From the NCBI GenBank assembly GCA_963971425.1, contig OZ020525.1, positions 248,001 to 312,000 of the forward strand: DNA of 64,000 nt, written 5' to 3'. How positions within the stretch are numbered: the stretch's first letter is position 1; each line of letters begins with the position of its first letter. The translations under genes were made by a program, and so were the position numbers. This DNA comes from Bryoerythrophyllum caledonicum. Lineage: Eukaryota; Streptophyta; Bryopsida; Pottiales; Pottiaceae. Below, piece after piece: positions 1 to 42,280 of this stretch. Below the pieces are notes generated by a model. That model saw nothing but the letters and a program-made list of their open reading frames with translations. It was not told the origin of the DNA and ran no database searches.

Positions 1-745
1 TGTGAGTTTTCTGTGGCTCTACACAAAGACAGTTGAATCAACAATCAAACAATAAATCCAGGATGCAAGTACCGAAAGAATATTGCACGGACTTAGTGAA
101 TGATGCTCACTTGTTAATATCGTGCATAGCATGAAGAGCCAATCCGACACTACCTTTGATATCCAAACAAATGCAATCCACGGAGATGTGCCAATCCACA
201 TCAGCATTGTGCATTCTCTCAATATATCCCATCCATGCCTTGAACCGATGATTTCCATCACATATGAAGAATTTACGATTCTTCAAGAAGCTCAACTGGG
301 AAGTAGCCAAAAGATTTGACTCAAAGCGATCATTGGTTGCGTTCCACAAAGGGCCCCATTTTTCTTTATCCTCCTCAGTGACAAAGGACTCCTCACCGAG
401 GTCATTGGAAAGAGAAACGTAAAACACAGTAGATCCAGGACGATATCCATGTGTAAATTCAGCCTCCAACCGCTTAATATCCGACTCCAGTGTGGGTCGG
501 ACAAGTGGCATGTACACAAGCCTGCACAACGGCACATCAAAGCGAGAGGAAGCCTTGGGTGCAATGCGTAGGCTGTCTATGGCAAAGATACAATTTACCC
601 TTTGGTGTTGACAAAGCTCATCTTCGTTAAGATGTTGGTGACAATCCACCTCATCCGCCACCGAAACATCCGCGTCCGGATGTGAACTTGTGCCACCAGA
701 GAATTCGGGTGATCGGGTAGACCGCTGAGATGATGACGGGTCCAT
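1..745 (-). CDS. ParB/sulfiredoxin-like domain protein, 3' end outside the window
   Basis: An open frame of 212 codons runs leftward from 745. It reads as a ParB-like fold: a segment around VYMPLVRPTLESDIKRLE, then FFICDGNHRFKAWMGYI at about 219-275. The DGNHR signature is the kind found at the core of ParB N-terminal and sulfiredoxin-like domains. The frame ends in ALHAMHDINK, like the N-rich helix that follows this core in ParB proteins. A splice donor (AACAA/GTGAGC) ends this exon at 111 and an acceptor (TTTGTGTAG) starts another exon at 18. The join keeps the frame, so the gene continues off the left edge. The ATG at 745 may not be the true start, because an acceptor (AAATTCAG) lies just before it, so earlier exons are likely. 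The fold is read by eye; a different DGNHR-bearing family is possible. Confidence 0.55.
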
Positions 746-860: not shown

Positions 861-1178
861 TTAGAACTCAATATATATTTTTCCAAATCCTCTCAGCCAA
901 TAAAAAATAGCGTCGGCATCGACGCTACTTTGGGAGCGGCCATATACTCTTATCACGTATTTCACGTACTCCAGTGCCACCTCGAAGAACGCGCTATTTT
1001 GGCACATTGGAAGCCCCGACACCAACACGGTTGCCAACAGCGGCGGAAGCTCAATCTGAAAAAACGCATCAACTAAGGTCGCCACCCTGGAACTATCGTC
1101 CTCCCCGCACATCGGAGAGGACAGCACCCCTACAGCAGCATCCGGGGGACTAGCTGGCATCTCGCAGTGAGCATCCAC
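861..1178 (-). other. Possible upstream exon or chance ORF, 105 codons
   Basis: This open frame lies just upstream of the ParB-like exon on the same strand. It has mixed hydrophobic and acidic content (VATLVDAFFQIELPPLLATV) that looks protein-like. I see no clear splice donor before its stop, and one copy of the locus palindrome (911-924) falls inside it. It could equally be non-coding. I recognise no family. Confidence 0.2.
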
Positions 1179-2904
1179 TCGGGAATGCTCTCACAAAGGA
1201 AGGGATCGTTGACCTTTATTCATCTGAGCTTGAAGCGCAATTTCTAGAGAACCTAAACTAGTACAATAATACTAGGCTAATGTTGACCAATATAACAAGT
1301 ACAATTTGCAGATCATACGAACATTACTGTGACGAACTTAACAGAAAATAACTACTCCGGCACCGACGATCATGGTGGTGCTTCTTACAATCAATTCATT
1401 TCAACAAAATTTTCATACAATGAAAGCACAATCAGCATCTTGATGTATTATTCATGTGAACTTGGACCCTCTAAAGCATTTTCAATAATCTTGAGTCATT
1501 TTTTGGATATTTATGATCAGCTATGAAAGATTGTCGGTACCGACGAGCCCATATTAGGGTGACTAATGATCATAAGAAAGAAAACTAACTAACCAGATGA
1601 TCATATTTTTAAAGAGAAATACTCATTCAAAGAATCAGCAAATGAATCCAATGTGATAAATCTATTGAGTTCCCCACTCAAAAGAATCCGGAGAATAGGT
1701 GAGTCGGTGCCGACGCAACGAATTCTACTCAACGCCCTGGATGGTTGAAATGCATTATACTCTCACATAGCATAATATTCTAGACGAATCATTTCAAGTA
1801 TCGGCCTCAACTCACATTACAACCATAAACTTTGAATGTAATAACGACATCAGTTTGGTTGATTGTGCAGCCGAATGGTGAAATACATTCAGCGTCGGTA
1901 CCGACGCTGGTTCACGAAATTTGAATATAACAATGCCAGCGCAAGAGGCCCTGCCATTCGACAAGTAATTATGATTCATCGCAATACCAGGCAAGCGCGC
2001 ATCGGCCTTTTATCTAATAAATATTTCTCTTCCTGGCTAGCCGAGTCGGGAGTTTGTGCACGTAAAAGCACTAGAATTACTACGGTTATCAGAGTAGCAA
2101 GGTACCATTAAAGCCACTATAACTGATTTATTGAGCCATTCGAAGTATCACAGTTCATCCACATGCACGTCAGATTATAATGAGACAAGCATATGACTAT
2201 CGGTAGGATCAACCAGGTTGCTATTCCTTTCCAAAGTTCGGCCCCACATTTATTCATTCACTCTATTCATGCCTTCGGTAGCTGAGCAACATGAGGTAGT
2301 CCAAATTTAATCGATCGTAGCCTCGTCGTTCGTTACCACCGAATATGGTCCACCACCGACTGTCATCGAAACCACCACCAACTGTCATCGTATCCCAAAC
2401 CGAGGACTCATGTCCCACCACGTGGTGCCCTCCATCATGATCCAACGACACTCAACCAACCCCACCGTCACCACCCAAAAAACGCTCGCTCTCCAGGTCA
2501 ACTTCTAGACTACGCAGCACATACCACGCAATACTCAACATAAAAAACATCCACTCGCGACTCTACACTCATGAGTTACCAATTTTCGTGAAGTCGGCGA
2601 CATGAAAGCGATAAGTTTTTGTGAAGTCGGCGACACTCAAGAATCCACACTCACGAGAGTACACGACGCACGAATCCACACTAATGCGCACATTCAGTCA
2701 GCACTCACGAACCCGAATTTCAGAATCCACTCCCACGAATCTGAACTCATTCTGCCTACATTCAGTCGGCACTAACGAATCCGAATCAAGAATCTACTCT
2801 CACGAATCTGAACTCATTCTGCAAACATTCTGTCGGCACTCACGAATCCGAACTTTAATTCCACAGTCACGAGACTTCGAGATCGAACAACGTCAGTACC
2901 GACG
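911..2904. repeat. Dispersed palindrome family, core GTCGGTACCGAC
   Basis: Six copies of one palindrome lie beside the left-edge ParB-like gene: 911-924, 1357-1368, 1533-1545, 1703-1715, 1891-1908 and 2891-2904. The copy at 1891 is perfect over 18 bases (AGCGTCGGTACCGACGCT). The others differ at one or two positions, several at the centre (GGTACC, GGTGCC, GGCACC, GGCATC). The flanks are unrelated, so only the palindrome is shared. A partial copy lies in an exon of the related gene at 24815-24828. Confidence 0.75.
2691..2850. repeat. Tandem repeat, about 67 bp period, about 2.4 copies
   Basis: Units begin CATTCAGTCGGCACT and recur at 2691, 2759 and 2826. Each contains CACGAATCTGAACTCATTCTGC or a close variant, built from shorter CACGAATC words that also occur from about 2560. 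The long plus-strand ORF over this stretch is a by-product of the repeat. Confidence 0.7.
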
Positions 2905-2980
2905 CAGTCAAGACTTCATCCAAATCGACGACCCTTTCAAGCGCAAAGGCTCCCAGGTGATAGCACGTACCCTAAAGTGA

Positions 2981-4325: not shown

Positions 4326-4385
4326 CTGCCCATTAAGCATTTGGACTAGAGAATATCGAACCCCTCTGAGTACATATATTTTCAA

Positions 4386-8583: not shown

Positions 8584-8591
8584 CTTAAATA
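8584..8591 (-). promoter_or_regulatory. Likely TATA box of the gypsy LTR
   Basis: The minus strand reads GGTATTTAAGC, about 340 bases into the LTR and about 160 bases before the first ATG of the LTR-borne ORF. That is where a U3 core promoter would be expected. If it is used, the ORF would be the first frame in the element's RNA. Confidence 0.45.
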
Positions 8592-8927: not shown

Positions 8928-8939
8928 TTACCCCTTTTT
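8928..8939 (-). other. Polypurine tract of the gypsy fossil
   Basis: The minus strand reads AAAAAGGGGTAA immediately before the TGTGGG start of the LTR. It overlaps the end of the pol frame. This is the classic site for plus-strand priming and fixes the inner edge of the 3' LTR. Confidence 0.8.
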
Positions 8940-10855
8940 CACACGTGAGCGTCCTCGCGAACGCTGTCGGGAGGACTCTCCGTATGGTAAAGTTTAACTC
9001 TAGATCCATTAGTTCTTGTTTCTAGTGGTCTACCCTCTAGATCTTCTAGTTGTAAGGAGCCATTAAGGAAAACTTTACAAACTCGGAAAGGTCCCATCCA
9101 ACGAGTATGGAGTTTACCTGGAAAATCTTTATGACGGCTGTCAAAAAGAAGTACCAGACTTCCTTCCAAAATTCCGGTTTGGGTTGGTAGTTTCCGGTCA
9201 AAGTCTTTCTTTCGCCTTGCTTGGATCTCCTTTGTCCGGTCTAGAGCGTCTATCCGGCTTTCCTCCAAGTTGTCAATTTCATCTAGTCGTTGACTTACTC
9301 CTTCCTTCCGGATACCCTGACGGCTGGCTAGAACCCGGAAGGTTTCAACTTCGGTTTCTATTGCCTGAAGCACTTCCTGACCGTAAACGAGAAAAAATAG
9401 ACTCTTACCGGTGGTACCCTTGTATGCTGTGTTATAGGCATACACTGCAGAGGTAAGTTTCCGGTCCCAATCCATTTTGTGGGAGGTCACCACCTTTGCC
9501 AATATCTTGCCTATGATGCTGTTGGCTCGCTCCGTCAACCCATTTGCCTTCGGGTTATTAGGAGTGGTCTTCCGGTGGTTGATGTCATATCGTCCGGTTA
9601 GATCTTCTATCACATCATTCAAGAAGTGGGTTCCGCAATCACTTACCAACTCTAATGGGTGACCAAACCTCCTGATGATCTGCTCAAAGACGAATTTGGC
9701 TGCCGTCTCTGCGTCATTCTTCCGGGTTGCTCTGGCCTCTACCCATTTTGTCGCGTAATCTGTCGCCAGGATAATGTAGCGATGCCTCTGGCTTCCCAAC
9801 GGTTGAATGGGACCTATAAAATCTACTCCCCACTTCTCGAAGGGTGCCAAGGGTACGATGGGAGTCAGCGGCCAATGGTTCCGGAAGGTTGGGTTTCCGG
9901 TTCGTTGGCACGGGTCGCAACTTTGAATGAAGTTCCGGACATCCCTGTTTAAATGTGGCCACCAGTATCCGGCAGCCCGTATCCTTTCGACAGTGGTGCC
10001 GGATGCGAAGTGTCCTCCAGATGGTCCGTCATGTAGACTCCGGATCACGGTCTTCCGGAATCTCGGTTCCAAACACCTCCTTAGCTTCTCATCCGCCCCG
10101 AGCCGGAATAGAACATCACCAATCATTGAATATGGCGCTACCCGGTGTTGAAAAACACTCTTTTCCTCTCGAGACATTCCCTCCGGATACTTCTGCGTTC
10201 TAAGGTGCTCACACATTGGGGTCAACTCGGGATCGTCATCTTCTGTCGTCCAGAAGATGGTGATGTCTCTGGATTCCTTTTCGGGAGGGTTCTTCTGATC
10301 AATGAGATCCGGAAACTCATCCGGAAAATCTGTCTGCAACTCAAGGGGGTTCTCCGGTCCACGCTGCCTTGATAGGTAATCCGCGTTTAGATTGGACTTA
10401 CCGGACTTCACAATCACTTCGTAGTTGAATTCCTGTAGAAGGAGGATCCACCTTGCAAGCCTCCCGGATAGATCCGGTTTGTTAACTAGGTACTTCAAGG
10501 AATCATGATCGGTGTGGAATATTACCTTGTATCCTAGAAGATAGTGCCGGAACTTCTTACATGCGTAGATGACTGCCAGGGCCTCTCTCTCCGTGGTGGT
10601 GTAGTTCTTTTCTGCCGGATTCATTTGCCGACTATCATAGTAAATGGGCCGCTCTCGTTTTTCTTCGTCCGGCTGCCAAAGAATTGCACCTAGGCACCAT
10701 CCGGAAGCATCTAGGGTTACATGGAAGTCTTTTGTCCAGTCCGGTGGTGCCAGGATCGGTGTTGTCACCAACCGGGTCTTTAGTTCTTCGAAGGCTGCTT
10801 GCCGGAGTCCGGTCCAAATGTCACAATCCCTCTCTCTGAAGATGGATTTGCTCAT
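8939..10855 (-). CDS. gypsy pol fragment: RNase H and integrase (fossil)
   Basis: About 638 codons are open. The order is end of RT/connection (AAFEELKTRLVTTPIL), RNase H (VTLDASGWCLGAILWQ, YTTTEREALAVIYACKKFRHYL, FHTDHDSLKYL), the HHCC integrase finger (HDGPSGGH...CDPCQ), the integrase core (WGVDFIGPI, ELVSDCGTHF, a Glu in NPKANGLTERANS) and a GPFRV-type C-terminal end. The order RT-RNase H-integrase marks it as Ty3/gypsy rather than copia. The first few residues may belong to the abutting MULE sequence. Confidence 0.85.
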   Translation of the reverse strand: MSKSIFRERDCDIWTGLRQAAFEELKTRLVTTPILAPPDWTKDFHVTLDASGWCLGAILWQPDEEKRERPIYYDSRQMNPAEKNYTTTEREALAVIYACKKFRHYLLGYKVIFHTDHDSLKYLVNKPDLSGRLARWILLLQEFNYEVIVKSGKSNLNADYLSRQRGPENPLELQTDFPDEFPDLIDQKNPPEKESRDITIFWTTEDDDPELTPMCEHLRTQKYPEGMSREEKSVFQHRVAPYSMIGDVLFRLGADEKLRRCLEPRFRKTVIRSLHDGPSGGHFASGTTVERIRAAGYWWPHLNRDVRNFIQSCDPCQRTGNPTFRNHWPLTPIVPLAPFEKWGVDFIGPIQPLGSQRHRYIILATDYATKWVEARATRKNDAETAAKFVFEQIIRRFGHPLELVSDCGTHFLNDVIEDLTGRYDINHRKTTPNNPKANGLTERANSIIGKILAKVVTSHKMDWDRKLTSAVYAYNTAYKGTTGKSLFFLVYGQEVLQAIETEVETFRVLASRQGIRKEGVSQRLDEIDNLEESRIDALDRTKEIQARRKKDFDRKLPTQTGILEGSLVLLFDSRHKDFPGKLHTRWMGPFRVCKVFLNGSLQLEDLEGRPLETRTNGSRVKLYHTESPPDSVREDAHV

Positions 10856-13800
10856 ATTACTGCGTCACGATTGAGTCTGAGATTTCATATGAAAGCAGAC
10901 TCTTTGTATCTCGACGAAGAAATGTTTGATGGTTCCTCTGGACGTATTACTCATACGCTAGGTCAGCATCATACATATATTGATAATGAGAAGCAGTGGT
11001 TGCTTAAGCCAGGTAGATTCAGAGTCTATGGCTTAAGTTACATTGCTAAGAACCCATCCGCAGAGGACGGTACTCCTCATTGTTCAAATGCTCCCATACT
11101 CTCTGAAGTGAAGGTTGAGCTTGATTCTAACTTTGTCACTATCATAAGTGATGACTCCAATGCTGACTCTCCTACGCGTAAGATTCCTTCGTCGCGTACC
11201 ACCGTTGATTGCTCAAGGCCTGATTCATCGGTTGATCGCATCTCGGGTAGAAGTGGATCTTCTCCTGCGAGCTTTAGTGACTCTGTTAGTATTATTGACT
11301 CACTAAAGCAGTAACGTGATGGAAAAGGATCTAGAAACATGCTCAAGAAGCTTGACTATAGTACTGTTTGTATTCAAAGAGTACATAGTCTACCCCCTGT
11401 TTTCAATGAGGATGTCATTTTTGAATTACCTCCCGTCCAAGCCTCTGGAATGCTCTTGCAAGCGAAGTTGATGACAGGAATGGACAAGCGATACGACGGC
11501 CACGCTTGGACAAAGACAATTACCTCGCATATCAAGAATGACGCGGGACTGACATTTTGCACATCCAGTTGCGTGGGCCATCTCCAATGCGATAACCGTA
11601 ATTGTGCCTACTTGACTTGTGTCCATCGAACATCTTCCATCAACAGTACGGAGTGGGAGGGCTCGACATCGTCAAAGTTTGGGGTTGGTTGTCTTCCACT
11701 GAACGGTTCATCACTCGTTTGTAAGATTTGTAAGACACCCCCTTCTTGCCTTGCTAGCTGCAATTCTAGAATATACTATGTGTTTGGGAGTTCAATTATG
11801 ACTCGCGCATGTGTGCATTTAGGGGTCCATAGACATCCTGTCAAAGTTGGTGACTATAAGGAGTTGACCGAGAGGACCAATGCCCTTCTTGGAGAGCATG
11901 TTGAAAGGACCCCAAATGCTACTATCTCTGCAATTGTTTTGGAGGCAAGTAAAGATATTCTTGGAGAGCTTCTTCTACGGCCTGAAGATGTTCCGTCAAA
12001 GACCTTGAACCTGGAGGAGTTAGTACCTGTTTTGGATATGTGCAAGTCCATCAGTTCACCTAGTATTTGAAATCAGGTCACAAGTTTCAAGTACCTACGG
12101 CGGTATGGCATCATCGATAGTATCACAAAATTGAGGGGTTGCAGCAATTGGGCTTTCATTCAGGAAAATAAATTTCCGGGCCAAGGATCCGATTCAGATA
12201 AGGTATTTGTCTTCAAGATGTCTGAAGTGGGGCCAGGAAGTGGAGTTGACTTGGTAAGACGAATGCAGCCCACCGGCGACCTCGAAGACGCATGGTTGAT
12301 GTTTGACCATGTCAAGCGTGTAAAGCAGTGGACCACCATGGCTTGCCATATGTACGACTCAACTTTTTGTAGGATTATGACTCTGGCGATTTGTGATATG
12401 CAGTCTGAGGATGCCGCTGCTCAATGTATTTTTTGGAAGAATCTAAATGCAGTAGCAGCTAGGCATGACATACCCGATCCTAAGTTCAAAGGATTCATGG
12501 CTGATAGCACGCAAGCAAATTGGAATGCAGTGCGGGTCATCTATGGAAGTGGCGATGCCTCCATCCCAATGGCTAATCAAGAATGAACATGCCTCTTCCA
12601 TTGGACCCAATCCCTTGAGAAGCATACGAAGGCCGACATCAGGGTTGACCTCCAAGATCAACATCGACAACTTTGCAAGCAATATAAGAATGCAACAACA
12701 TTTAATGAGGCCGAAACTCGCTACCACGCCATCGTAGGATGGTGGCATTCTTCAGGTGCCGCAACGGGGGAGAGCTTGAGTCGTTTGGAGCTGTGGCTAG
12801 CATTTTGGCATTTTTGATACCGCCAGTGGGGTGGCTTTATGCAATTCGTAAGCGAAAGCCGTAAACATGTTTTCCGAAACCATTCATTTCTGTGCCCAAA
12901 TATTCGTACTCATCAATATTCATGTTATTGGTTGAATAACACCTTTGTTCCTTCATTCCATGGCATGTGTGTAGAATCTTAATGAGGCTGAGCTTGCCGA
13001 GATGCCCTCATGCAATCTTTCAGAGACAGTCGACAACAAATGGCTCCAGCAGTCCGGAAATCGAGGTAATGACTTGTATGTGGCCACTGTGGTTGACTTT
13101 GTAAGGGCATTTATGCAAGTGGTGAAGTATTATCAGTTTCTTAAAGGGAACGTGGAGGCAATGGGCCTAGAAAGGAGGAGTTGCTATTAAGGGTTGCCCA
13201 ACGCTCTGTCTCTCGCTCTGGAAACCCCAAGGTTCTCAACGAGGCTATAGCAAAAATGCCTGGAGCTGATGAATTTTGCACTCGTCATCCCCACATGGAA
13301 GGAGAAGAAGTATTTGGTAGTCAGAAACGCAAGCCCGACATGCCTTTCGGTGACGAGCATGAGTCCCATCGGCCTGACAAGGTAAACTATTCTTATCCAA
13401 GAATCAATACCAGAACATCCAGAGCTCGTACAGGTGCACCTAATATGAGTAATGTTCACAAGGAGTTTCTTTCTACCGTACCTGAAGAAGAAATCGTTCC
13501 CATGGCAACAGAGGTGATTCAATCTCCATTGAAATCTCTTTCAAGCCATATTACTGCCGTTCAGGAGACTGTATGCAATAAGTCGCAATGGCACATTGCA
13601 AGATTGCCAAAGACTTTTGCAAAAGCATGTTTTGCATTACAGGCAGTTACCAAGAGAAAGTGTATTGCAAGAATTGTGCAAGACAACAAAAGCACTGCTC
13701 CTACCTATGTTGGAATGATGGACAATTATAAGAAGAACAAGGTGGAGCGCATGCAATTCTTCTTCTGCAATGACGACATCGAGCGTTGTGTGAAGGGCAC

Positions 13801-14434
13801 CAAACGCAAGTGGGTCCTCTCGAAACCTGATGTTCCAAGTGTCTGGCCAGTTTTAATTGGAACTAATCTTTCGAAGAAAGAAATTTTGGCACTCGAGAAT
13901 GCAGGTTTTCAACTACCTCAATGTGTGGCGATGTCTCCAAGACGACTTTTTGGTAGTCAAGGTTCTACCCTTGATATGAATTTTCATCCCACTATGGATT
14001 CCCCTGATGAATATCCTAAGATCAGATGTGGGAAGAGTATTCGTAGGAATATGAGGGCTCCTACTACAAAACATCTCAACAATTGTGCATCAGCTGTCAC
14101 CCTCAGGTGTCGCATTCATCAAGTGACCATGGTACCTCATCCAGGATTTGGATGTATCGTTACTCTAGAATCTGGTATAGTTTCCAATTCTCAACAGTAC
14201 CTGATCACTATAGGTTCATTTCCAGATTGTTCATGTCCATATTTCAAAGAGATGTTGACAAAGTCCTTAGGGAAACGAGGACAATGGACCCAATGCAAGC
14301 ATCTTTACTACATCTTTACTATTATCTGTAGTTTGGATTCCGCAGTAGATGTGTTTATGCATGCCCCGAGCTTTAGCTTCAATGAAGTGAAGCGTGTTCT
14401 AGAAACTGGGGTTTTATGCCACGTATCACCATGA
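10830..14434 (+). pseudogene. Mutator-like (MULE) transposase with SWIM finger, decayed
   Basis: One frame is readable from about 10,830 to 12,848. It then crosses a likely intron (donor MQF/GTAAGC at 12849, acceptor TGTGTAG at 12974) and resumes to 14,434. Domains in order: a Cys/His-rich zinc-binding region (CVGHLQCDNRNCAYLTCVH at about 11,570, CKICKTPPSC at about 11,720), the DDE core with Asp in YDSTFCRI (about 12,355) and ADSTQANWNAV (about 12,500), the CLFHW block (about 12,590), and a C-terminal SWIM finger CSCPYFKE...CKHLYYIF at about 14,230-14,320. In-frame stops lie at 11312, 12068, 12584 and about 12,817, and a one-base frame change near 13,170. It is inactive as it stands. No terminal inverted repeats were found. 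Confidence 0.75.
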
Positions 14435-15652: not shown

Positions 15653-18600
15653 TCAAGATCTTGGTCTGGCTTCGAGTCGAGGGCGCTTGTGCTTGTACGC
15701 ATCCTTGAACTCACACTCCTGGAGAATCAGCTGCAACTCAGCCATCTCCACATTACGACGAACATCCTCATCATGCTTGAAAAGATACGTCTCGTGTGCC
15801 TTCTGGTAATTCAACCAAACAACCAGCTGCTCTTGACGCTTGCTGGAATTCTCCAAGGCAAACATCGAGCTCGCACCGTGGAGAAAGTTGGTAATTACCA
15901 TACACTCCAAAGTTCTCATATGGCGACTTGGCATCTGCTACATCTTCGTCCATAAGTGAAACTCAGGCTTGGTTTCATCAAACCTGTTGACGTTCACCAC
16001 GCACTTGTATCGCATACACATGTCAGACAAAATGTTGCAAAACATTGCAGCTCGAAAACACACAGGGTCCGTGTGTCTTCGGTGAATCTCAAAAAAGGCC
16101 CGGTAGGAATCACTACATTCCTGGGAAGAAGAAAAACTCCCTGGAATCTGTGGCCAGTTGTAAGGCACTGTGTCGAGCTTACTCCAGGGCGCCCACTTAT
16201 AACGCCGATATCCCTTCAAGGGACACTGGTGGTAACTCATCGTGATCGCTGCTGGTGGCACCTTTGACCATGTCTGGGATGCCTTGGGATACAGCTGATT
16301 CCACTGTCTCCAGACCTGCGGTGACAAGCCGAAGTCCTCCAACAGCCAATCTATGGCTTGCCATGAGAGAAATGGCACCTCCTCCTCGTTGTTAAACAGA
16401 TTCTCGTATTCTCCTAGAAATCGCTGCTTGTTCAACGACCCGGTTACCGGTAATGGCAAGCCTCCCCAGATCGTGTGTCTATAATCCGGAGGTAGTGACA
16501 TGAAAGTGGCCATTTGAACCGCTTCTGCCACATCCACCGTTTTCTTCTTTGCTCCCTCGATTGCACGCTTAAGTCGGTGGTGAGCTCGGACCTTGGCGTA
16601 GAGATACTGCCCCATGGTGATCTCACCCCGTTGCGCCAAGTCCTCGCGCTCTTGGACTTGAGTCATGCATCCCACAAAGCTCTGTTCGTTCTGCAATAAC
16701 TACGTCAGCTTCTCCATCTGGTTCTTCCATTCTCCCAGGTACTCCGAGGTAGTGGGAACGGTCTTAAGATCAACCTCAGGAATGACTACCATTCTTTGAG
16801 CTACATCCGGTTGATCATACTGCCTCCGCATTTGCAGCTGCCCCTCCAAGTGCCAGTAATATAGTAGCACTCTGGCTCTAATATCACTGATCGGCACCAG
16901 CAATTGTCTAGCGTCCTCCAGCTGAAGGTCCTGCCTCACGATCATTTTGCAGTTCAAATTCTGCACGTTGGCGAAGTTCGCCGCTGCGGTCTACAGGTTT
17001 TGGAATTCCGCCTGGCTCAACTTGTCTCCAGCGTTCAAGCACATCATGCTGAAACAAGCATTCCTCTGCAACTCATATGCTCGAAAGAGTGCAAAGGTTG
17101 GCGGACTATATAAGTCATGTCGCCAAATTGCCTCTTGGAGTTTGCTCTTTACTCCTCTATCTGTGGTCGTCTGTGAAGTCAACCGTGCATTAGCCTCGGT
17201 GACCTCCTGTACCTTCCCTTCCAACTTCGCTACTTAAGAAGAGTCAGGCGTAGCTACGGTCGACGCTTCCCTGCTCGCCTGTACCTCTCTCTTTTGTTGT
17301 GCTAGCGATGTCGCCAACTCCTTTGCCTGATTATTCTCAGCCTGATATTGCTCCTTCACCAGCTGATGTTGAGTCTTAAGACTCGCAATCTCGAGCAAGT
17401 ATTCTTCAACTTGTCTCTTCTTCGTAGTGTGGAGATCCTTATAGTTGGCAGCGCTACCGGAAGCTTGCCGGAGCTCTTCTTGCAACGTGTGCCAATCTCG
17501 CACATGTGCTTCTTTGTCTCCAGCTAGAGCCGAATTCTCCTTCTTCGACTCCGCCTTGAGACAATGGTATTCTTGCTCCATATGGCTCAGCTTCTTCTGC
17601 AACTCCTCGCATTGTTGTGCCTTTGTCGTCTGCTCGTTGCACAAAGTCTCCCAGCGCTGAACTTCTTCAGTTGTTTGGGCAAATTTTCCTCGCAGTTCAC
17701 CCCTCCCCCTGTCCAGCAGCTCTCTAGCCCGCTCCGCTTCCAACAACAACTTCTCCAACCTGAGCTTCTCCCGTTGGAAGTCCTTCTGCATCTGATCCTT
17801 AGCCAACAAGATATCCTTGTTGGTTGCTTGATACTGCGCCACCAGATCATCCTTCTGGAACACCAACTACTCAAGATTTGCCTTGTTCAACTCTCGTACC
17901 TCACCATGTTTGGTGCCCTCCACTCCCTGCGATTTCTTCCCCGTTTGCTTGGTAGGAGCTTCATCTTCAGGGTCCTCCATTGTGGCAAGCTCGGGAGCAG
18001 CGTACAGAACAATCTGCTTGGATGGTGTCTTGGACAACTTCGCTTCTGTTGGTGGACGTGATTCTTGTCCTGAAGTGATGCTCAAGACACCTCCAGTGGA
18101 GATCGGGGCTTCCCCATCTTCTTCTGCACTTCCGCCAGCGGTTTCTTCCCCTTGTCCTTCACTGGTGCAGGGGCTTCACGTGACCCTGGCGTCTCCTCTT
18201 GTGCGTCCTCCCTTGCTGGACTGGTCATGTCTTCATCTCCTACGTCTTCTTCTTCTTCAGAAGCCTCTTCCGGTTCCTCTTCTTCCTCCGGTTCCTCCAC
18301 CATCTTGTGCAATCTCTTCTTCTTGGCACTCCTCCCTGATTCTTCTTCCACCTCCTGTGCTCCTCCAGTCAAGCTCTTCCTCAATGGGGGACAGATTGCT
18401 GAGAAGTACGTGGTCCCATGGAAGAAGATGTTGTGGCGGGTATTCTTCTCTGCTAGCTCCAATCGGAGATGCGCGTACATGATCTTGGACCAGCTGAGTC
18501 GCTCTCCATTCCAGCTCTTGTAAGCTGCAGCCAATGCGCTAGGTGATAATACCTCCGTTCCATCAAAAGCCATCAAAAGTCGAAGGTTGATGAATTTCAA

Positions 18601-19826: not shown

Positions 19827-20961
19827 TTAGTTGATCTTTAGGTGACGAAGTGTGTAGGCCCAGTGTTGTGCTAGGCCACCCGGAAACTGATGAAGGTCAG
19901 AGAGATATGGCAGCAACTCCTCCAACAATGCGGAATCGTCTCTCGCGCCAACATGTTTGTGCGACCATGATGGAAGAAGAAGGACGTTCTCCGGCAAATT
20001 GAGCATGTGCTTAATCGGGCTGTCGTCAATGACAAGCATATTTGCCGGAGTATACTCACGACCCAACCTATTGAAGAGATGGCTCGATAAGGTCTTCAAG
20101 AAGATGTCCTTTTGAGTGCCAGATTCCTTCATGTAGATTGTTCTGCTACCGACTCTACACTCAGGAATCCTATCGCAACTCTCCTGACCAAAGATCCTGA
20201 GAGGGTACGAAGAACTATGCTGAAAAAGATAATTACATATCTAACGCGTTGTAGATTCCATCATCGAACTCCAGATCGTGATGGTGGCAATCTTAGACAA
20301 CTTCGTAAGGAATTCAGCACAACCAGGGCGCACTCGAACTAGTTTAGGGTCTACTTCGGCTGGCAGCGAAGCCGAGTGAATGGACGGGATAGAGTTCCTA
20401 GATCCTCTGGCCTGCCACGACGGCTCACACGTGCAAAGAATCCCATTGAGGTCCAACACAATATTCAACCACCTGCCCTCGATATCTGATAGGTCTCTAG
20501 GTATTTCTTCTAGATTACTGACACCACTTATTGATGCCTCGCCGACCTGGTTCGGAAACGCCAGGAGAACGACCAATATTACTACAGATTCATTAACAAC
20601 GACGAATCAACAATACGTAGAACGAAAGAGATAAATGGGGGGAGGAGTGATGGGGAAAGTGCGGAGTTCGAAAAGAGTTAGAAGAATACCTCGAGAACTT
20701 CATCGTCCTGCAGCATTTCGTCTCGGGCACCCATCGATTCCAACGAACCCTGCATGTTGTCAAGGGGCCCGGAGTGCCCAACATCCATTTGGGGGCACGG
20801 TTCTGGGACAAGAAGAGGTGGCTCCAGGACAACAGAATCATAATTGATCTCGTCTACAAGCACGGCTGAAACTTGGATGACCTCTTCTATGACTGGGACT
20901 ACAGTTTGGACGACCTCTTCTATGACTGGTTGAGCAATCGCGTCATCACCGAAACTTAGAT
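19827..20961 (-). pseudogene. Two exons with FCP1/NIF-type HAD phosphatase domain
   Basis: Exon 20961-20690 carries a short tandem repeat (QPVIEEVVQTVVPVIEEVIQ). Exon 20546-19827 holds the domain: motif I LNIVLDLNGILC at about 20,430-20,470, VRPGCAEFLTKLSKIATITIW, QESCDRIP, KDIFLKTLSSHLFNR, and the late motif MLVIDDSPIKHML at about 20,000-20,040. The family dephosphorylates Ser/Thr, classically on the RNA polymerase II tail. Motif I is DLNGI rather than DLDGT, so the second Asp (general acid) is Asn. One in-frame TAG interrupts the domain at 20241; the reading is otherwise continuous to TAA at 19827. Confidence 0.6.
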
Positions 20962-21169
20962 CTGAAAAATTTCAACAACGTCACCCTATCAGCGGATGCG
21001 CACAGAGGACACTGATACAAGTCACAGTGGTTAGATGTCAAGTAGTTTAGCTCGAGTCGAGCTGAAGTGCTCGCCGTGCACTGTAATATTAACAAAAAAA
21101 TACTGGAGTACAAAATTGGACATTTACAAAATGCTCTATCTATATACACTCGCAACTACGTACACTAAC

Positions 21170-22126
21170 CTGACGATGACCTGGGGACATCTGCGATAGA
21201 TTCGTCCCGATCGGGCGACTTCGGAGGGGAGGAGGGGCGCGCCGACGGGGAAGGGAGAACATGAAGCAATTGACCCCCACTGGAGACAGGGGAGGTACCC
21301 GACGGAGATGGTAGCTGCAAATCGCGAGACGGACTCCTAGACCCGCCGTCCGGTGAGGCGGGAGGCTGGGGGATCGCAGCATTAACTACGGGTGGTGTTA
21401 TGGCGGTAGCAGGAAAATTAGCCGACATGAATCTCTGCATCTTGAGCATCATCTCGGCATGCCTCTGATCTTGGTCCCTCTTCATTTCATCGTCACGCCT
21501 CCGCTGCAGATCCCTGAGCTCCTTGTCGCACTCCGCCAGCCGCTGCTCCATCAACCTCATCCGGGTGGCCTCCTCTTTGAGCTTCTTCTCAAGAGAGATC
21601 AACCTGCTGTCATCCTGAGCGCTGCTCGCAATAGCGAACGGAGAGCGTCCGCTTGCGCTGGCGACCTTCCTCTTCCTTGCCGCGGGACGAGCGGATGAAG
21701 CGCCCAAGGTCGGAGCTGAATGAGACCTGTCGGAAATCTCCAACGAATCCAACTCCGGGAAGTCGAGTCGTTGTCGCGAGGAAGCGATTGTGTCTCCTGC
21801 TTTAGATTGAGAGGCACTCTGAAACTCAGGCGGAGTAGCGTCAACGAAGTCGTCCTGGGACTCATTATCCGGAGTGACGGTGCTCGAGATCGGGCACGCA
21901 ACCATGGCGCTGGGCTCCGCATCTTCCTCCTCATCGCCGAGGTCAACAATGGCTTTCCCCTTCCCTTTCCAACGGCCTCTCCAAGCTCGGGGAAGATCTC
22001 CGAGTTGACGTGATACGCATAATTATCGAAATCGGCCAGATCCAACGTCAACGCGACCTCAAAGGCGTCGTCGAGGTCTTGCTCATCGGTGTCGTGGGAA
22101 ATACAGAATGCCTCCAGGTCCAGCAT
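21170..22126 (-). pseudogene. Exon with acidic, basic and coiled-coil linker
   Basis: The acceptor is GGTGTGCAG before 22126 and the donor is TCGTCAG/GTTAGT at 21169. It begins MLDLEAFCISHDTDEQDLDD, is acidic (DLGDEEEDAEP), then has a basic patch (RPAARKRKVASASGR), a coiled coil rich in Lys/Glu/Arg/Met (about 55 residues around RLAECDKELRDLQRRRDDE), then a Pro/Ser-rich tail. One frame change lies near 21,940 in a G/A-rich run. It looks like a flexible linker with a possible nuclear signal. Confidence 0.5.
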
Positions 22127-22405
22127 CTGCACACCAATGGATTAAACAAGATTCAATTTAGGTCAAGTCGAGCTAAACTCACTACAAACAATTGCTCGTA
22201 CAAAAACTCAGCTATTACAACTTCAAAGGATACAAACGTAGTTAATGACTTCTAGAAAATAATACAAGTAAGAGCCGACACTTTAGCTCGACTCGAGCTA
22301 AAGTCTCACGCAACAGCATAGGCATGACCTCATTGAAACTATGCACGAGTCAGAAAGGGTATCAACAGTTTAGCTCGACTCGAGCTAAACTACAGGGATG
22401 CTTAC

Positions 22406-23772
22406 TACACTCGCAGTCAGTAATTTTGTCCCGCCAAACAGTTGGACAACAGAATCCCCCCTCTTGCAGAACAGCTCCAGGACCTTAATGAAGAACTCCA
22501 TCCGAAGCTCGTTCAAATTCATGGAGTATGCCAACTCGTTGTACTTGTGCAGCTTCGTGTATAACACATGCTCTGGAGCTGCATAGATCTTCTTTACGGC
22601 CGGGATCACCGTAAGCTCCTTCTTGAGGAGAAAGAAGGCCGAACCGGGTCGAGAGCGTTGTTGGTCTTTGGCGCGTATCCTCCCAGGCGCTCGTTCTCGG
22701 AGGGAAGATACTTTGACTGCAGCACATCGTATGCATGGCAGAAGGACGGGCCCTCAGCAAATGCTGTCACTTGAAGGTGTGACTACTCGTTGCCGCAAAT
22801 GAAGAGTCAGGCTGGAAGATCGGTGAGGGGAGGGTGCCCTTTCGATGCGAACATCGTCATGAACTCGTCAAAGAAGGGCCTCTCCAACGACGACGTTGCC
22901 GTCTCAGAGAACCCAGGGATATTCCAAAAGTCGATGATGCCGAGCTTCACATTGCAGCCTTGGTTGCGCCACGAATCCGAAGGCCACGTGCCGAGCGAAT
23001 TCATTGCCGCCTTGTAAGAACGGAAGTGCAGGGCTCCCGCAGGTGAGACAAACCGCGACCGCACATCGATGAAGACTCTGAAGAACTCCTTCGCGTACGG
23101 AGAGAGATCTTCACATTTGCAGTTGCAAAACTGCGTTTGCCTTGAATCCTTGTAGTATGAATCCGGTGGACCCCAATCTAAGAGGGCACGCTTTGAGGCC
23201 TTGCTGACATTGTAGTTCTTCTTGAATGTCCGCCAGTTTGAACGACTGTACGCTCCAGTGCTGTTGAAGAAGGCCAGCTCCGCCCTGATCAGTTGAAGCT
23301 CCATCCGACAGACCTCCTTCCTCTTCCTCCGATCCACCTAGTCCCGGGCTGTATAGCAATCCTCCAGCGCAGAATTCGGCAGCTTGATAACCACCTTAGG
23401 CTAGGGCAGTTTCAGAGATGGCCCTGATCAATTGAGAATGTGCTTGCACATTTTTGCGTGATCGGCTTCGGTCATGTTGCCGAGAAACTTAAAGAACTCG
23501 CGCGTCAGGACCCCATCCTTCTCAGGTACCCAAGACTTCGCGTCCTTGAATTTTGCCAAGGGCATCGAAGTCGAATCCACGTTGATGAGGTCGCCATGGG
23601 CCGCAGAAGAGATGACGTCCAACCAGAGCTTGAAGGTCTCATCTGTCGCGGTGATGATCTTCACCTCGTTCGTAATTGAGAGCTTCTTCGCCTTCCCGGC
23701 TTTCTTGAGCGCTGACTGGCTCTTTGCAACGTCGATCATTGCGAAGCGCTCACAAACCGTGTTAAGAAATGG
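22406..23772 (-). pseudogene. Exon with beta-class DNA methyltransferase-like region
   Basis: The acceptor is TCTACGCAG before 23772 and the donor is AGTGTA/GTAAGC at 22405. RALLDWGPPDSYYKDS at about 23,150-23,195 looks like the catalytic motif IV (DPPY-type) of N4/N6 DNA methyltransferases. The exon ends with RMEFFIKVLELFCKRGDSV, then VQLFGGTKLLTAS at about 22,412-22,455. That resembles the C-terminal motif I of beta-class enzymes (gDxVlDpFgGtGt). The order IV then I is the beta-class order. The Asp of motif I is replaced by Gln and the final Gly by Lys, so activity is doubtful even apart from the stops. Confidence 0.5.
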
Positions 23773-23999
23773 CTGCGTAGAACATAAAAAAGGTCGTTTG
23801 AGTTTACAATTAAAGTAGGAATAGAAACATGTCCAGTAGGGTCCAAATACTGCAAGTTAGCTCGACTCGAGCTAACTTGCAACCCATGAGCAGACAATGA
23901 CGATTTTTTATCTATACATATGACTGTACAGATATAGAGCAAATTTGCACTTTAGCTCGAGTCGAGCTAAAGTGCATGACCTTGGTTAAGATATATTAC

Positions 24000-25446
24000 C
24001 TCAAACCTCTTGTCATTTGCAATCTCCACTACCGTTCTCCGACCCGACTTGTGAGACCCGCAAACGCCTGTGGCGGAGTGCTTTGGCATTGGTCTCCCAG
24101 CTTGGATCCACAAAGCACGGGAGCCGAGGATATTTGTTGCCCACGTCGGCTTGAACTGGACCAAGTGATTCATGCGATTATAATACGCGGAAATCTTCCT
24201 CAGCTTCTCCGGATCCTGCGTCCAGACAATGTAACATTGCCATGTTTGGAATTGCCTTCTCATCACCTCCGGGACGTTGCCGTTAATCATCTCTTTTGAG
24301 GCAACAACGGTTTGCTGGCCGTTGATGATGTAGAAGTTGCAGCCGCTGAGCTCCTCAACAGTCGTCGGCATAGCGTCGAGCTTCGACATGACGCAGAGAG
24401 TCTTCTTTTGCGTCTTGTCGGGCATTTGGAGGTAGTAATGCTTCAACTCCTCCATGCCCCGAGGTTCGAACGCACAGATCGTCCACTCCAGCGGTGCATT
24501 ATGCAACCTCATCACGTCAAGCTCAATCTTCATCTCTCTGTCGCCTTTGAAGAAGCAGCTCTGACACTCCGTCCAGAATTTTTGGTAAATCTGTTGGACG
24601 TTGTTGTAGTCAATTGTCTCTCCGTATCCGAGCGCCTTAGGGAGCTCCGAGAGTGCAGAGGCCATCGAATAGGCTAACTCCTCCTCTGATACGAACTTCA
24701 ACTTCTTTCTTGAAGAGGTCTCCGGCTTCTTGGCAGCTGACCGCTTCTTCACGGGGGAAGCAGACAGCGTGTTGCGTAGGGTGCTTCGGCTTGTTCTCGC
24801 ACCTGGTGTTCTAACCGGTACCGACGCTTGACTCATGTCCTGGCTTCCGGTCACGGCCCCCAAAATCGTTGAAAGTTCTATCGGGCGTCTTGCCGCGATA
24901 TTCTTGGCCTTATCTACGGCGGCAAAGTTACTCATTCTAGATAGAATCACGTGCAGTTTATTGGCTACAGCCTTTGCTTTTAGCAGATGTCGGCTACTAG
25001 TCTCCCATTTCTTAAGAGAGATCTCATGCTCGACCTGAGTCCCTATTTCCTCAAATTTAGAAGACCTAAGAGAATCGACTAAATCCTAGATACAGAAGGG
25101 AGATGAACTATTGTTCACTACAATAGTAAAGAAATATGGATCTAAGGACTCAGTGGTCGTCTCACACGACAACTTAACGTGATCGTTATCTTCGTGGACT
25201 ACATCAATAACTTTGGTCTTGAAGTCGATGTGCTGGAGATCGACGATAGCACCAGCGAAGGTCTGACCAAACACTAAATGATCCGTATTGGTCGCCCACA
25301 GAAGCGTCCACTTCAGTGTCATTGATGGGTCCTTGAGCTCCCAGCAATCCAAGTGGTTGTTGTCGTCTCCATCGTCATCGTCAACGTCGACAGGCTTTGG
25401 CTGGAAGAAGTGCTGCAGGTGAGACACCATCCTGTCCCTCTCAGAT
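24000..25446 (-). pseudogene. Exon with ParB/Srx-like core
   Basis: The acceptor is TTTGTGCAG before 25446 and the donor is TTTGAG/GTAATA at 23999. The exon begins with an acidic run (VDVDDDDGDD), has one in-frame TAG at about 25086, then a Lys/Arg-rich stretch (SPVKKRSAAKKP, nuclear-signal-like). At about 24300-24335 it has NFYIINGQQTVVASKEMI. The NGQQT block sits where GGHR, DGNHR or DGQQR sits in ParB, Srx-like and DUF262 proteins. It is followed by WQCYIVWTQDPEKLRKISAYYNRMNH, which fits the next strand and N-rich helix of ParB. The match is by motif and predicted order only. Confidence 0.5.
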
Positions 25447-25622
25447 CTGCACAAATACGAAACAGAGCACAGACATTAGATTGCTCTAATGATCATCCGA
25501 TTAGGACGGCGAGGTCACACATTAGCTCGACTCGAGCTAAAGTGTAATGTTATTTAAGTATGTGAATAATACTTTGCAGAAAAGTTTAGTCAATTAGAGC
25601 ATTCTCTTAGACCCTTTCAATC

Positions 25623-26106
25623 AACTCATGCCAACTTCTCGTTCAACTTCCAAAACCGTGGAAAAGCTTACAAACCGATCCAATCACTCACGAACCTCAC
25701 TCTTAGAGGTTCGCAAGTAGTTGGAGCGGGACTGAAGCTTACGCACTGTTTTTTGAGAGGTGAACGAAAAGTAGACATGAGTTAAGATACTAGACTGCAA
25801 TTACACGACTGTAACAATGTTGTAATCAAGCGTTAGCTTCATCTTTAGCTCGACTCGAGCTAAAGTGCTTATACATAGAATGCATAGCTGATTAATTCTG
25901 ACACTAACATTGATCATTCAAGCGACTTTACAAGACTTTTTAATTCAATTCATGGCTACTTCTCATTCAACTCTCAGAAACTGTGGAAGAGCTTCAGTTC
26001 CGCTCTAATCACTCACGAACTTCACTCATTGAGGTCCTTAAGTGGTTGGAGCGGGTCTGAAGCTCTTGCCCACTTGTGAAAGGTGAACGAGAAGTTGACA
26101 TGAGTT
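25623..26106. repeat. Two fold-back repeats of about 160 bp
   Basis: Copies at 25623-25783 and 25947-26106 are diverged versions of one sequence. Each is itself an imperfect hairpin: AACTCATGCCAACTTCTCGTTCA at the left pairs with TGAACGAAAAGTAGACATGAGTT at the right, with CTCACGAACCTC/GAGGTTCG-type pairing near the loop. They resemble fold-back MITEs or long hairpin RNA precursors. A palindrome copy lies between them (25843). Confidence 0.6.
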
Positions 26107-26338
26107 AAGTCATAATTATCATTGGTATACTTTATTTCAGGAATGTTTAGAGTCCAAATGTTGTTGTGTTTGAGTTGTTGTTTATGTTCATTGTCTTACA
26201 CTTTAGCTCAATTCGAGGTAAAGTGTGCTGGCTTTACTGGAAGGTCATGTCATTTTTGACCGAGATTTTCGAGAATTTTTTTTAATTTCTTTCGCTGGAG
26301 CCGGCTTTAGCGCAACCAAAGACGTATTTAGTCGTACA

Positions 26339-26679
26339 TTTAAGCTCGACTCGAGCATAAGTGGGCCTCCATGTGCACTATTGTCCTCACTTTAGCTCGA
26401 TTCAAGCTAAAGTGCGCTCTCAAGGGTGCTTTGTTGGTCACACTTTACCTTGAGTCGAGTTAATGTGTAGCCAAAAGAGCATGCTGGAGAGCGCACTTTA
26501 GCTCGACTCGAGCTAAAGTGTGGCCAAATGTGCACAGTGGAGGCCTACTTTAGCTTGACTCGAGCTATAGTGTGGACAATAGTGCTTCGTGGAGGCCCAC
26601 TTTAGCTTGAGTCGAGCTAAAGTGTGGACATTAGTGCAATATCGATGTTCCACTTTAGCTCGACTCGAGCTAAACTGTG
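26339..26679. repeat. Tandem palindrome array, seven units, about 52 bp period
   Basis: Palindromes start at about 26339, 26388, 26439, 26493, 26546, 26598 and 26650. Steps are 49 to 54 bases. Spacers share words such as GTGTGGACAATAGTGC and TGGAGGCCCAC, so the whole unit is duplicated and not only the palindrome. Units 26439 and 26339 are the most diverged. The array is the upstream end of the palindrome-rich region. Confidence 0.85.
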
Positions 26680-26884
26680 TTCATTGAAGAGCTTATTTAT
26701 TGCAGTTTGTGCAGATTCTTCTTTCGTTCTATGATATTGAAGGCGTAGGGTTTAGGGCTCCTGGGTGAGAGCATGGATTTTACCTTTCAGCCATTGATTA
26801 TGAACCTTAATCCTAGACAAATTCTGCTGGAACTAGACGTCCTGCAGAACAATAGCAAACCCACACACACAAAATCAATCACAG

Positions 26885-27135
26885 TAGCACATGGAAACCA
26901 ACACATTGAAATCATTCACAATGAAATCAGCACTTTGAAATGAGCACAATGAAATTAACACATTGAATTCAGCACATTGAATTTAGCAATTGAAACCACA
27001 ACATTGACTTCAATGTGCACATCTAAACTAGCACAAACCAACACATTTAAACTAGCACAAACCACGACGAATAACCACAAACCACCACAAACCACCACAT
27101 TCAAACGACCACATTCAAACCAGCACATTGAATAC
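26885..27135. repeat. Degenerate CACATTGAAAT-type simple repeat
   Basis: Words such as CACATTGAAATCA, CACATTGAATT and CAAACCACCACA recur at 10-14 base spacing. Apparent ORFs on both strands here are repeat artefacts. Confidence 0.65.
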
Positions 27136-27350
27136 ACAATCTCATCTATTTCTCACACATACATCAAAAGCAATGCTATCATAATGTTTCAATACATCAT
27201 ATCTAAAGCAAAACTACACAAATATCGAAAGAAATGCAAGACCGAATGAGTGCACTTACCTTTGAAACTGAGAAATTCGACTGAAATAGTTGCAAGTCTT
27301 GTTCCTTGTTCAAGTCAATCCTCCGCGTACGACCGTTTCAGACTCTACGT

Positions 27351-27529
27351 GCTCACAGAAACTCACACATACTCACAGGAACTCACAAAAACTCACAGAA
27401 ACTCTCAGAAACTCACTCACAGAAACTCACAGAAACTCTCAGAAACTCACAGAAACTCACACGAACTCACACAAACTCACACAATCTCTCTCAAACTCAC
27501 AGAAACTCAAACAATCTCACACAAACAGC
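27351..27529. repeat. ACTCACAGAAACT minisatellite
   Basis: About fourteen 12-base units of the form ACTCACAGAAAC and variants run head to tail. All three plus-strand frames are open through it, as expected for a 12-base period without stops. Confidence 0.8.
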
Positions 27530-28503
27530 CCTAAACTCTAGCGCTACAGTATACGCGAACTCACACAACAAGAAATCGCGCGTACAAACAAGCACGTACA
27601 GTATACAAATCCTATCCGCAGGAAACCCTAACCTCCAGTAAACTGCACACGAAAGCCTAAACGCAGCGCTACAGTATACACAAACTTAACAAACCCTGTA
27701 GATAACGAAACCAACACAAACTGCAAACTCGCAACGACGAACCAACGCATAAACGCACAAGACTCACAAAACAACAACGCATAGAAGAACACACACAAAA
27801 CCTGGACAGCAACAAGAAGAGAAGAGAAAAAGCGAGCGCCACGATTTCGTGGGGTACTTTCGGGGGCACCTAAAGCCGTGAGGGTCGAAACCCTATGGCC
27901 GTGTGGTGCTCCCGAGATACCCTCGGGATACCCTTCTTGATATTCGGGTGAGACCCTCGGGTAGAACGTATGGTTGCACCACAATTCATTCACCTTTATT
28001 ATTGATACCCGGAGTTTCAAGAAGCCAATTTAATCTTTCTAGAACAAGTTCAAGATATTACGCGCGTGTAGTATTTCTGTACTCGTAAATTTTCTACACA
28101 TTTTTTCTAGGCCATTAACACTACAATTTTGCATATTCTGGGGCAACGAACAGGTAGCAAAAGAAAAGTGATTATTTCCAATTAAAACTTCTAAATTAGC
28201 ATTTTCTCAATAATACACAAACTTGGATTGGACGGAAGTGAACGATTATATATTAGTGTTAGAAACAGGATTTTACTGTTTAGTTTTCTTTCATGGTTTT
28301 AGTGGATCAGCTCGCTTTCACTTGACTTGATTTCAATTTCAGCATTACACAAGGAGTAAATTCATTACCATCAATGTATATAAGTTCCTCCTACACCAAT
28401 TATTAGGTGAAGCACACTTAAGAGAGTTCTAAAGCTACGATTTTAAAATTCTATTACTTTGAATTCACGTTTTGATTTTTTATGAGTTTGATATTAATTA
28501 CTA
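27530..28503. other. Non-coding stretch, nothing recognised
   Basis: Beyond a few CTCACACAA words at its start I see no gene or array. A short inverted pair of ACCCTCGGG/CCCGAGAT words lies at 27,910-27,960. Confidence 0.4.
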
Positions 28504-42275: not shown

Positions 42276-42280
42276 CATAC

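What the first reader, a model, noticed from the sequence alone, without database searches (positions are those of the whole stretch)
21046..26679. Sixteen copies of one long palindrome in and upstream of that gene
The palindrome (core AGCTCGASTCGAGCT) occurs in three of the gene's four introns, three times in one of them, and repeatedly upstream, but I find it nowhere else in the window. Arm bases differ between copies yet remain paired (AAGTTAG/CTAACTT versus ACTTTAG/CTAAAGT), which points to selection or copying that keeps symmetry. ParB proteins bind palindromic parS sites, so these may be the protein's own sites. That link is inference.
Basis: partly seen in the sequence, partly recalled or inferred. 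Interest (0 to 1): 0.87.

Follow-up and report, generated by a model that had tools for sequence, protein, structure and literature searches.

The report
Transposon carrying its own address palindromes
The palindromes are repeated tags of large jumping genes in what is probably a moss genome; the jumping genes carry ParB-like genes, and different types have different palindromes, which looks like a self-recognition system that can now be tested.

Summary
In detail: 16 copies at 21043-26677, none elsewhere in the window, in three introns and upstream of one gene. They are not unique to the locus: the genome (437 Mb, probably a moss) holds 7,907 matches against 2 for the reversed control. All 8 palindrome-bearing regions fetched match one ~19 kb DNA transposon (29-bp inverted ends, 4-bp target duplications, DUF7869 gene); the window has a truncated, broken copy.

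The gene encodes a predicted ParB-fold domain, a methyltransferase-like part and an FCP1-like part whose usual catalytic motifs were not found. Palindromes lie in introns and upstream of both element genes, none in assumed exons, and are better conserved between copies than their flanks (16 of 17 testable sites). In 19 of 34 homologues whose predicted protein runs into the intron, the palindrome appears as protein letters (shuffles 0.01).

A second element in the window has another ParB-fold gene with a different palindrome; four distant relatives of that gene also have recurrent palindromes, mostly different.

Best reading: element-encoded ParB-like proteins bind their own palindromes to control their elements, as VANC does in Arabidopsis. 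Binding and function are untested. ParB-methyltransferase transposon genes are known from algae; the matched sites appear new.

The parts
19857..28503 (-). truncated copy of the ~19 kb element (family 1), matching element copy A from 1518 to 10390; both ends and the DUF7869 gene are missing
   Evidence: 90% identity up to 26679, 81-82% beyond
24000..25430 (-). exon 1: ParB-like domain (NGQ motif); one in-frame stop at 25086-25088
   Evidence: fold on the homologue P0018
22406..23772 (-). exon 2: methyltransferase-like part, five in-frame stops and a frameshift
21170..22126 (-). exon 3: coiled-coil and low-complexity part, frameshift near 21955
19827..20576 (-). two FCP1/NIF phosphatase-like exon pieces (PF03031), on the same protein in Ceratodon homologues
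21043..21069 (.). palindrome copy in the intron after exon 3
22154..22180 (.). palindrome copy, intron 2 (centre AAGTC)
22279..22305 (.). palindrome copy, intron 2
22366..22392 (.). palindrome copy, intron 2
23853..23879 (.). palindrome copy, intron 1 (AAGTTAG/CTAACTT arms)
23948..23974 (.). palindrome copy, intron 1, about 25 nt past the 5' splice site; homologues show it at a similar place (from protein letters)
25518..25544 (.). palindrome copy upstream of the start codon
25841..25867 (.). palindrome copy upstream
26199..26225 (.). palindrome copy upstream
26337..26677 (.). array of seven palindromes (26337, 26388, 26441, 26494, 26546, 26598, 26651) at 51-53 bp steps
107..745 (-). family 2: second, different ParB-fold ORF (DGNH motif)
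910..925 (.). family 2 palindrome, GCGTCGG-CCGACGC type
1531..1546 (.). family 2 palindrome
1701..1716 (.). family 2 palindrome
1892..1907 (.). family 2 palindrome, perfect
2890..2905 (.). family 2 palindrome
10799..14434 (+). family 2: plus-strand ORFs, the last with a SWIM-like C-C-C-H motif (label from recall), possibly the element's transposase gene. The first of them resemble, by eye only, the plus-strand ORF at L040 8144-9739 on the same side of that locus's ParB-like ORF. Pfam names nothing above its cut-offs

Best explanation
The palindromes are the recognition sites of a protein encoded by the same transposable element. SHOWN: a ~19 kb DNA transposon with inverted ends and 4-bp target duplications carries two divergent genes, a DUF7869 (transposase-like) gene and a ParB-fold / methyltransferase-like / FCP1-like gene, with palindromes clustered upstream of both and in introns of the second; the palindromes are more conserved than their flanks; peptides in distant homologues imply the same palindrome just past the same exon; a second ParB-fold gene family in the genome has other palindromes upstream. 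INFERRED: a dimer of the ParB-like protein binds its own family's palindromes and from there promotes expression of, or removes silencing from, the element's own genes; the methyltransferase-like and FCP1-like parts, in which the usual catalytic motifs were not found, act as tethers or effectors rather than as ordinary enzymes. This would be the moss counterpart of VANDAL/VANC self-recognition.
For: 7,907 genome matches against 2 for the reversed control, in recurrent spacing; 8 of 8 regions fetched for their palindromes, which cover the clusters in the printed list (all on contig C1), match the element; element ends and duplications CATC, TAAT, CCTA; gene content; arrays upstream of both genes; 0 of 33 sites in assumed exons, about 39% of the element; 16 of 17 sites more conserved than flanks in copies other than A, C and E; 19 of 34 read-through tails of homologues hold the translated palindrome, shuffled tails mean 0.01; palindrome type changes once on the protein tree, 22 labelled rows; DNA of another probable moss (L001): 76% identical DUF7869-gene region with three palindromes upstream; ParB fold for both families; five family 2 members or groups with recurrent palindromes and a mostly empty off-diagonal in the cross table.
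Against: No binding, expression or methylation data. The two ParB families are not detectably homologous by profile (hhalign probability 0.6%). Whatever reads DNA beyond the ParB N-domain is not resolved (pLDDT under 50 over most of the rest). The site centre is asymmetric (GASTC), and variant cores occur in the element. Within-site compensation is rare. L042 and L044, two different members, share similar palindromes; the diagonal of the cross table is circular, since patterns were taken from the same loci; two of six family 2 loci do not exceed simulation on a pattern-free score. One site (15020) lies in the open frame ahead of the start I assumed for the DUF7869 gene. 15 of 34 tails lack the canonical peptide, 6 of 34 also the wider one.
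Confidence: 0.65

Rival explanations
1. The palindromes are binding sites for the element's transposase (as with the subterminal repeats of En/Spm, recalled), needed for excision rather than for gene control.
For: The element is a DNA transposon, and variant palindromes occur at 638 and 1357 and at 18331-18476, nearer its ends.
Against: The densest arrays lie inside the element, upstream of both genes, and further sites in introns. Family 2, in whose plus-strand ORFs Pfam finds no DUF7869, also has recurrent palindromes upstream of its ParB-fold gene.
Confidence: 0.1
2. The palindromes bind a host factor (activator or silencer) and are ordinary promoter elements that the transposon exploits or suffers.
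For: Arrays upstream of genes; conservation.
Against: ParB-fold gene families and family 2 members in one genome have mostly different palindromes; a single host factor would favour a shared site.
Confidence: 0.1
3. The sites are methylation substrates: the protein is an active methyltransferase of the CcrM kind that marks the GANTC in the palindrome centre.
Confidence: 0.12
4. The palindromes act as RNA hairpins (splicing, or double-stranded RNA for silencing), not as DNA sites.
For: The intron 1 site lies at a similar distance past the splice site in homologues.
Against: 10 of 16 window copies lie upstream of the start codon, and arrays lie upstream of both genes; whether these are transcribed is unknown.
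Confidence: 0.06
5. Passive sequence: tandem duplication plus quasi-palindrome correction keeps the arms paired without function.
For: The array units share flanks; some symmetric changes occur.
Against: Lower divergence than flanks, and peptides that imply the palindrome at one intron place in proteins of down to 39% identity.
Confidence: 0.04

Closest known systems
ParB-methyltransferase accessory genes of algal transposons (Sola1-1_Ec32 of Ectocarpus; PMC12477816, abstract and passages seen; it cites earlier green and red algal cases, not read)
   Same: Large DNA transposon (21.5 kb there, ~19 kb here), accessory gene on the strand opposite to the transposase, ParB-like plus methyltransferase-like protein (1104 aa there, about 1250 aa before the FCP1 part here); those authors suggest that such proteins may bind and modify their own transposon.
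   Different: Here a probable moss, a DUF7869 element and a second element type; an FCP1-like part is fused; the usual methyltransferase motif is missing; and matched palindromic candidate sites are found. 'palindrom' has 0 occurrences in that paper's main text.
VANDAL transposons and VANC anti-silencing proteins of Arabidopsis (PMC5735166: abstract, Results and Discussion read; PMC10398659: abstract and outline only)
   Same: Element-encoded protein; motifs in introns of its own gene and upstream of the transposase, often in tandem arrays; related elements with different motifs.
   Different: VANC has DUF1985/DUF287 domains and a nine-base motif (YAGTATTAY); here ParB-fold proteins and palindromes of 12-27 bp. 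VANC activity is shown by experiment, this one is not.
Bacterial ParB-parS partition proteins and the KorB and Noc relatives (parS background recalled)
   Same: Predicted ParB N-domain fold in both families; palindromic sites near the gene.
   Different: No Pfam match to ParB by sequence; no segregation role indicated; CTP use not tested; the motif reads NGQHSVAAS or DGNHRFKAW.
Lanisha transposons (Repbase report 2020, seen only as cited in PMC12730594, passages; its Ceratodon origin is recalled)
   Same: DNA transposons reported by Ceratodon genome authors; the family 1 protein has 16 Ceratodon homologues, 12 of them with U or V locus tags.
   Different: Described as EnSpm-like; identity with family 1 could not be tested (no Lanisha sequence held).

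Membership tests
DNA transposon (cut-and-paste type) | terminal inverted repeats shared by independent copies | tested here: met
   29 bp, AACACCATATTCGTTATA... / ...GAATATGGTGTT; seven left ends and the right ends of A, C, F, plus right ends of B and D
DNA transposon (cut-and-paste type) | target-site duplication | tested here: met
   4 bp in 3 of the 4 copies with both ends (C CATC, B TAAT, D CCTA; A differs, TCTG/CTCT)
DNA transposon (cut-and-paste type) | transposase | tested here: inconclusive
   DUF7869 match E 1.7e-37; Pfam gives no function, transposase role inferred
ParB-methyltransferase transposon accessory protein | ParB-like domain | tested here: met
ParB-methyltransferase transposon accessory protein | DNA methyltransferase domain | tested here: inconclusive
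ParB-methyltransferase transposon accessory protein | carried by a transposon, opposite strand to the transposase gene | tested here: met
   family 1, (transposase role of the DUF7869 gene inferred); for family 2 the plus-strand gene is of unproven function and element ends were not sought
VANC-like sequence-specific anti-silencing system | element-encoded protein with motifs enriched in non-coding parts of its own element | tested here: met
   (motif placement only)
VANC-like sequence-specific anti-silencing system | related proteins paired with different motifs | tested here: met
   family 2 members at 47-49% identity, one locus each (L042 and L044 share); family 1 clades from peptides only
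VANC-like sequence-specific anti-silencing system | binding and loss of DNA methylation | not testable with these tools
   no binding or methylation data held
VANC family proper (DUF1985/DUF287) | DUF1985 or DUF287 domain | tested here: not met
   Pfam scans of pieces of both ParB-like genes and of 23 homologues list neither at E up to 1
bacterial ParB-parS partition | CTP-dependent clamp loading at parS, ParA partner | not testable with these tools
   needs biochemistry; no ParA was sought
ordinary MITE or satellite | copies without association to a gene family | tested here: not met
   8 of 8 fetched regions match the element; these cover only the printed part of 7,907 places, on contig C1
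Lanisha superfamily | EnSpm-like transposase with C(2)C and H(3-4)H motifs | not tested
   no Lanisha sequence held; motifs not aligned

The most novel reading that the evidence does not exclude
A eukaryotic self-recognition code: at least two different transposon types in one moss genome each carry a ParB-fold gene (7,907 family 1 palindromes; 150 scored of 1,773 first-look family 2 gene matches), and the subfamilies have their own palindromes (the family 2 members seen share a TCGGNNCCGA core with differing flanks). Protein specificity and palindrome co-diversify, so that each subfamily switches on, or protects, only itself. A bacterial partition-type DNA-binding fold would thus have been turned into a transposon identity system in plants.
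Probability: 0.48. Interest if true: 0.87.

Novelty: new variant of a known kind. Interest (0 to 1): 0.77.

Why it matters
ParB-methyltransferase proteins in algal transposons were suggested to bind their own element (PMC12477816, passage), but no palindromic sites are named there. Here candidate sites come with the proteins, in two element types and several members, so the specificity code can be read from sequence and tested directly. If true it would be a second, independent VANC-like system, in mosses, resting on a bacterial-type fold, and could supply DNA-binding proteins with palindromic targets.

Tried and rejected
MITE or satellite: rejected, the palindromes seen travel inside a gene-bearing element. 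Chromosomal partition locus: rejected, thousands of copies. The exact 19-base core was not found in viral contigs. Sequence homology of the two ParB families: hhalign probability 0.6%, only the NGQH/DGNH stretch aligned. PHROGs: E 0.028 and 0.37 at best. Profile search of PDB sequences: none. Pfam for the ParB and methyltransferase parts: none above cut-off. GANTC enrichment in the element: 84 against 74 expected. Compensatory change within sites: rare. Literature: looked for ParB with transposons and gave only the Ectocarpus paper as relevant, judged from listings; one search looked for moss DNA transposons; one search asked about Chara, my first and wrong guess at the host, and found none. 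The library lacks most subscription papers; Carey et al. 2021 on Ceratodon is not held. Copy number by terminal repeat, and a genome search with the family 1 protein, never got an answer (server busy).
Full report
OBSERVATION. The 16 palindromes are there, far above chance, and nowhere else in the 64 kb. Seven form an array with 51-53 bp steps whose units share flanking sequence, so the array grew at least partly by tandem duplication.

GENE MODEL. On the minus strand: exon 1 25430-24000, exon 2 23772-22406, exon 3 22126-21170 and FCP1/NIF-like pieces 20576-19827. Splice sites were read by eye, and are supported by colinear homology in other copies and by Ceratodon proteins that run from the ParB part to the FCP1 part. 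The window copy is broken by stops and frameshifts, so nothing said about function applies to this copy itself.

MOBILE ELEMENT. Genome search (437,360,962 bases, 894 contigs): 7,907 places with at most one mismatch, against 2 for the pattern read backwards. Only the first places are printed, all on contig C1; they recur with the spacing seen in the window. I fetched eight regions that cover the printed clusters; 8 of 8 match the window element. Aligned copies start at AACACCATATTCG and end at CGAATATGGTGTT, about 19.0 kb apart in copy A. Of four copies with both ends, three have identical 4-bp flanks; copy A does not. The window copy spans element positions 1518-10390 only. Genes in copy A: the minus-strand gene above and a plus-strand DUF7869 gene (PF25273, E 1.7e-37).

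PLACEMENT AND CONSTRAINT. Copy A has 38 near-matches (18 or more of 26): arrays upstream of the minus-strand gene (8051-8469) and of the plus-strand gene (14581-14865), intron sites, and variant cores elsewhere. None of the 33 better ones (20 or more) lies in an exon as I set them (about 39% of the element, ranges approximate; the site at 15020 is in the open frame ahead of the start I assumed for the plus-strand gene). In copies other than A, C and E, 16 of 17 sites are more conserved than their flanks (sign test 2.7e-4); pooled identity is 0.896 for sites, 0.878 for exons and 0.807 for other non-coding sequence. Random 27-bp non-coding windows average 0.833 (sd 0.086), and 8.6% of them reach the mean of the 11 best-covered palindromes (0.919), so single sites are not exceptional; the pattern is. 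The arrays align poorly, and 16 of the 33 sites lacked data for the paired test.

DEEP CONSERVATION. Homologue searches returned 23 proteins (16 Ceratodon purpureus, 12 of them with U or V locus tags; 3 Physcomitrium patens; 4 unnamed) and 66 proteins matching exon 1 (31-64% identity). All 19 named ones are mosses, so the host is taken to be a moss; its name is not known to me. Many of these predicted proteins run past the exon into the intron. I spelled three peptide patterns from the reading frames of the window palindrome with a free centre base, though after a first look at some tails. 19 of 34 tails of at least 12 residues contain one (15 by the two longer patterns, 4 by the short third one); in 18 of the 19 it begins 5-14 residues past the exon end, in one at 45. 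Those 19 proteins are 39-64% identical to the query. Shuffled tails give a mean of 0.01 and a maximum of 1. Another 34 of the 68 proteins had shorter tails and were set aside. With wider patterns chosen after reading the tails, 28 of 34 match (shuffled mean 0.14, maximum 2); 6 do not. The tails are not independent: several come from close relatives. Some of the more distant proteins show peptides that imply AGGTCGANTCGACCT, a symmetric change. On a quick tree (46 rows, 22 labelled; labels partly post hoc, the second state lumping all other types) the type changes once. All this is inferred from protein letters. The one piece of foreign DNA at hand, L001, filed as a cyanobacterial bin but 76% identical to the DUF7869-gene region over 2.7 kb, has palindromes at 3816, 4191 and 4271 upstream of that gene; I take it to be moss contamination.

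SECOND FAMILY. The other ParB-like ORF (107-745) has five copies of the GCGTCGG-CCGACGC type within 2.2 kb upstream and none elsewhere in the window. Genome-wide: 108 matches against 8 for the reversed control. A genome search with its protein gave 1,773 first-look candidates, of which 150 were scored, all significant, 100% down to 42% identity, some being two pieces of one gene. For four members at 47-49% identity I fetched 1.6 kb upstream of one gene each: L042 GTCTCGG-CCGAGAC, L043 ATCAGTCGG-CCGACTGAT, L044 TCTCGGATCCGAGA, L045 CTTCGG-CCGAAG. In the cross table the diagonal is circular, because the patterns come from these loci; the informative part is the off-diagonal, which is empty except that L042 and L044 share a similar palindrome (3 each way) and that the short L045 pattern hits once each in L040 and L042. 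A pattern-free recurrence score exceeds all 60 simulations in 4 of 6 loci (two of these four, the window locus and L040, are one group) and in 0 of 4 control windows; L043 and L044 only tie the maximum. That these members lie in full elements was not checked.

MECHANISM. What the two element types have in common is a ParB-fold gene plus recurrent palindromes near it. The simplest account is that each protein reads its own palindromes. Placement upstream of both element genes and in introns, and fusion to an FCP1-like part (FCP1-type enzymes act on the tail of RNA polymerase II; recalled), point to control of transcription or silencing, as VANC does in Arabidopsis (PMC5735166). What happens after binding is inference.

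NOVELTY. A ParB plus methyltransferase accessory gene in a transposon is published for Ectocarpus, with earlier green and red algal cases cited there. New here, as far as the searches of an open-access library show, are the moss families, the FCP1 fusion and the matched palindromes.

CHECK.

Noticed in passing
L001 1-4327: A contig filed under a cyanobacterial bin (AVDCRST_MAG81) holds a piece of the transposon type with palindromes; P0053, named Leptolyngbya, is a similar case. Probably moss DNA in cyanobacterial bins.
   Followed up: partly
window 5200-10900: A Ty3-type retroelement ORF (8939-10855 minus; label from recall) appears to lie inside the family 2 element, between its ParB-like gene and its plus-strand ORFs.
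   Followed up: no
window 38300-44100: Many TTCCGG-rich short tandem repeats and two copies of an ATCCGGATGGCCATCCGGAT palindrome (38693, 43765), perhaps the two ends of a retroelement.
   Followed up: no
window 32613-35014: ORFs resembling a hAT-type transposase (recalled, not searched).
   Followed up: no
window 48650-57741: Reverse-transcriptase-like ORFs of a LINE-type element (recalled, not searched).
   Followed up: no
window 59374-60525: Pieces resembling chaperonin subunit CCT epsilon (recalled, not searched), the only likely host gene noticed.
   Followed up: no
window 12131-12586: Weak Pfam match to Phage_ABA_S (E 0.00078, below cut-off) in a family 2 plus-strand ORF.
   Followed up: no
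L017-L019, element copy A positions 10466-12300 and 18331-18476: Palindromes with the same outer arms but other cores (such as CTAATGG, CTAGTGG): a second site type or decayed copies.
   Followed up: no
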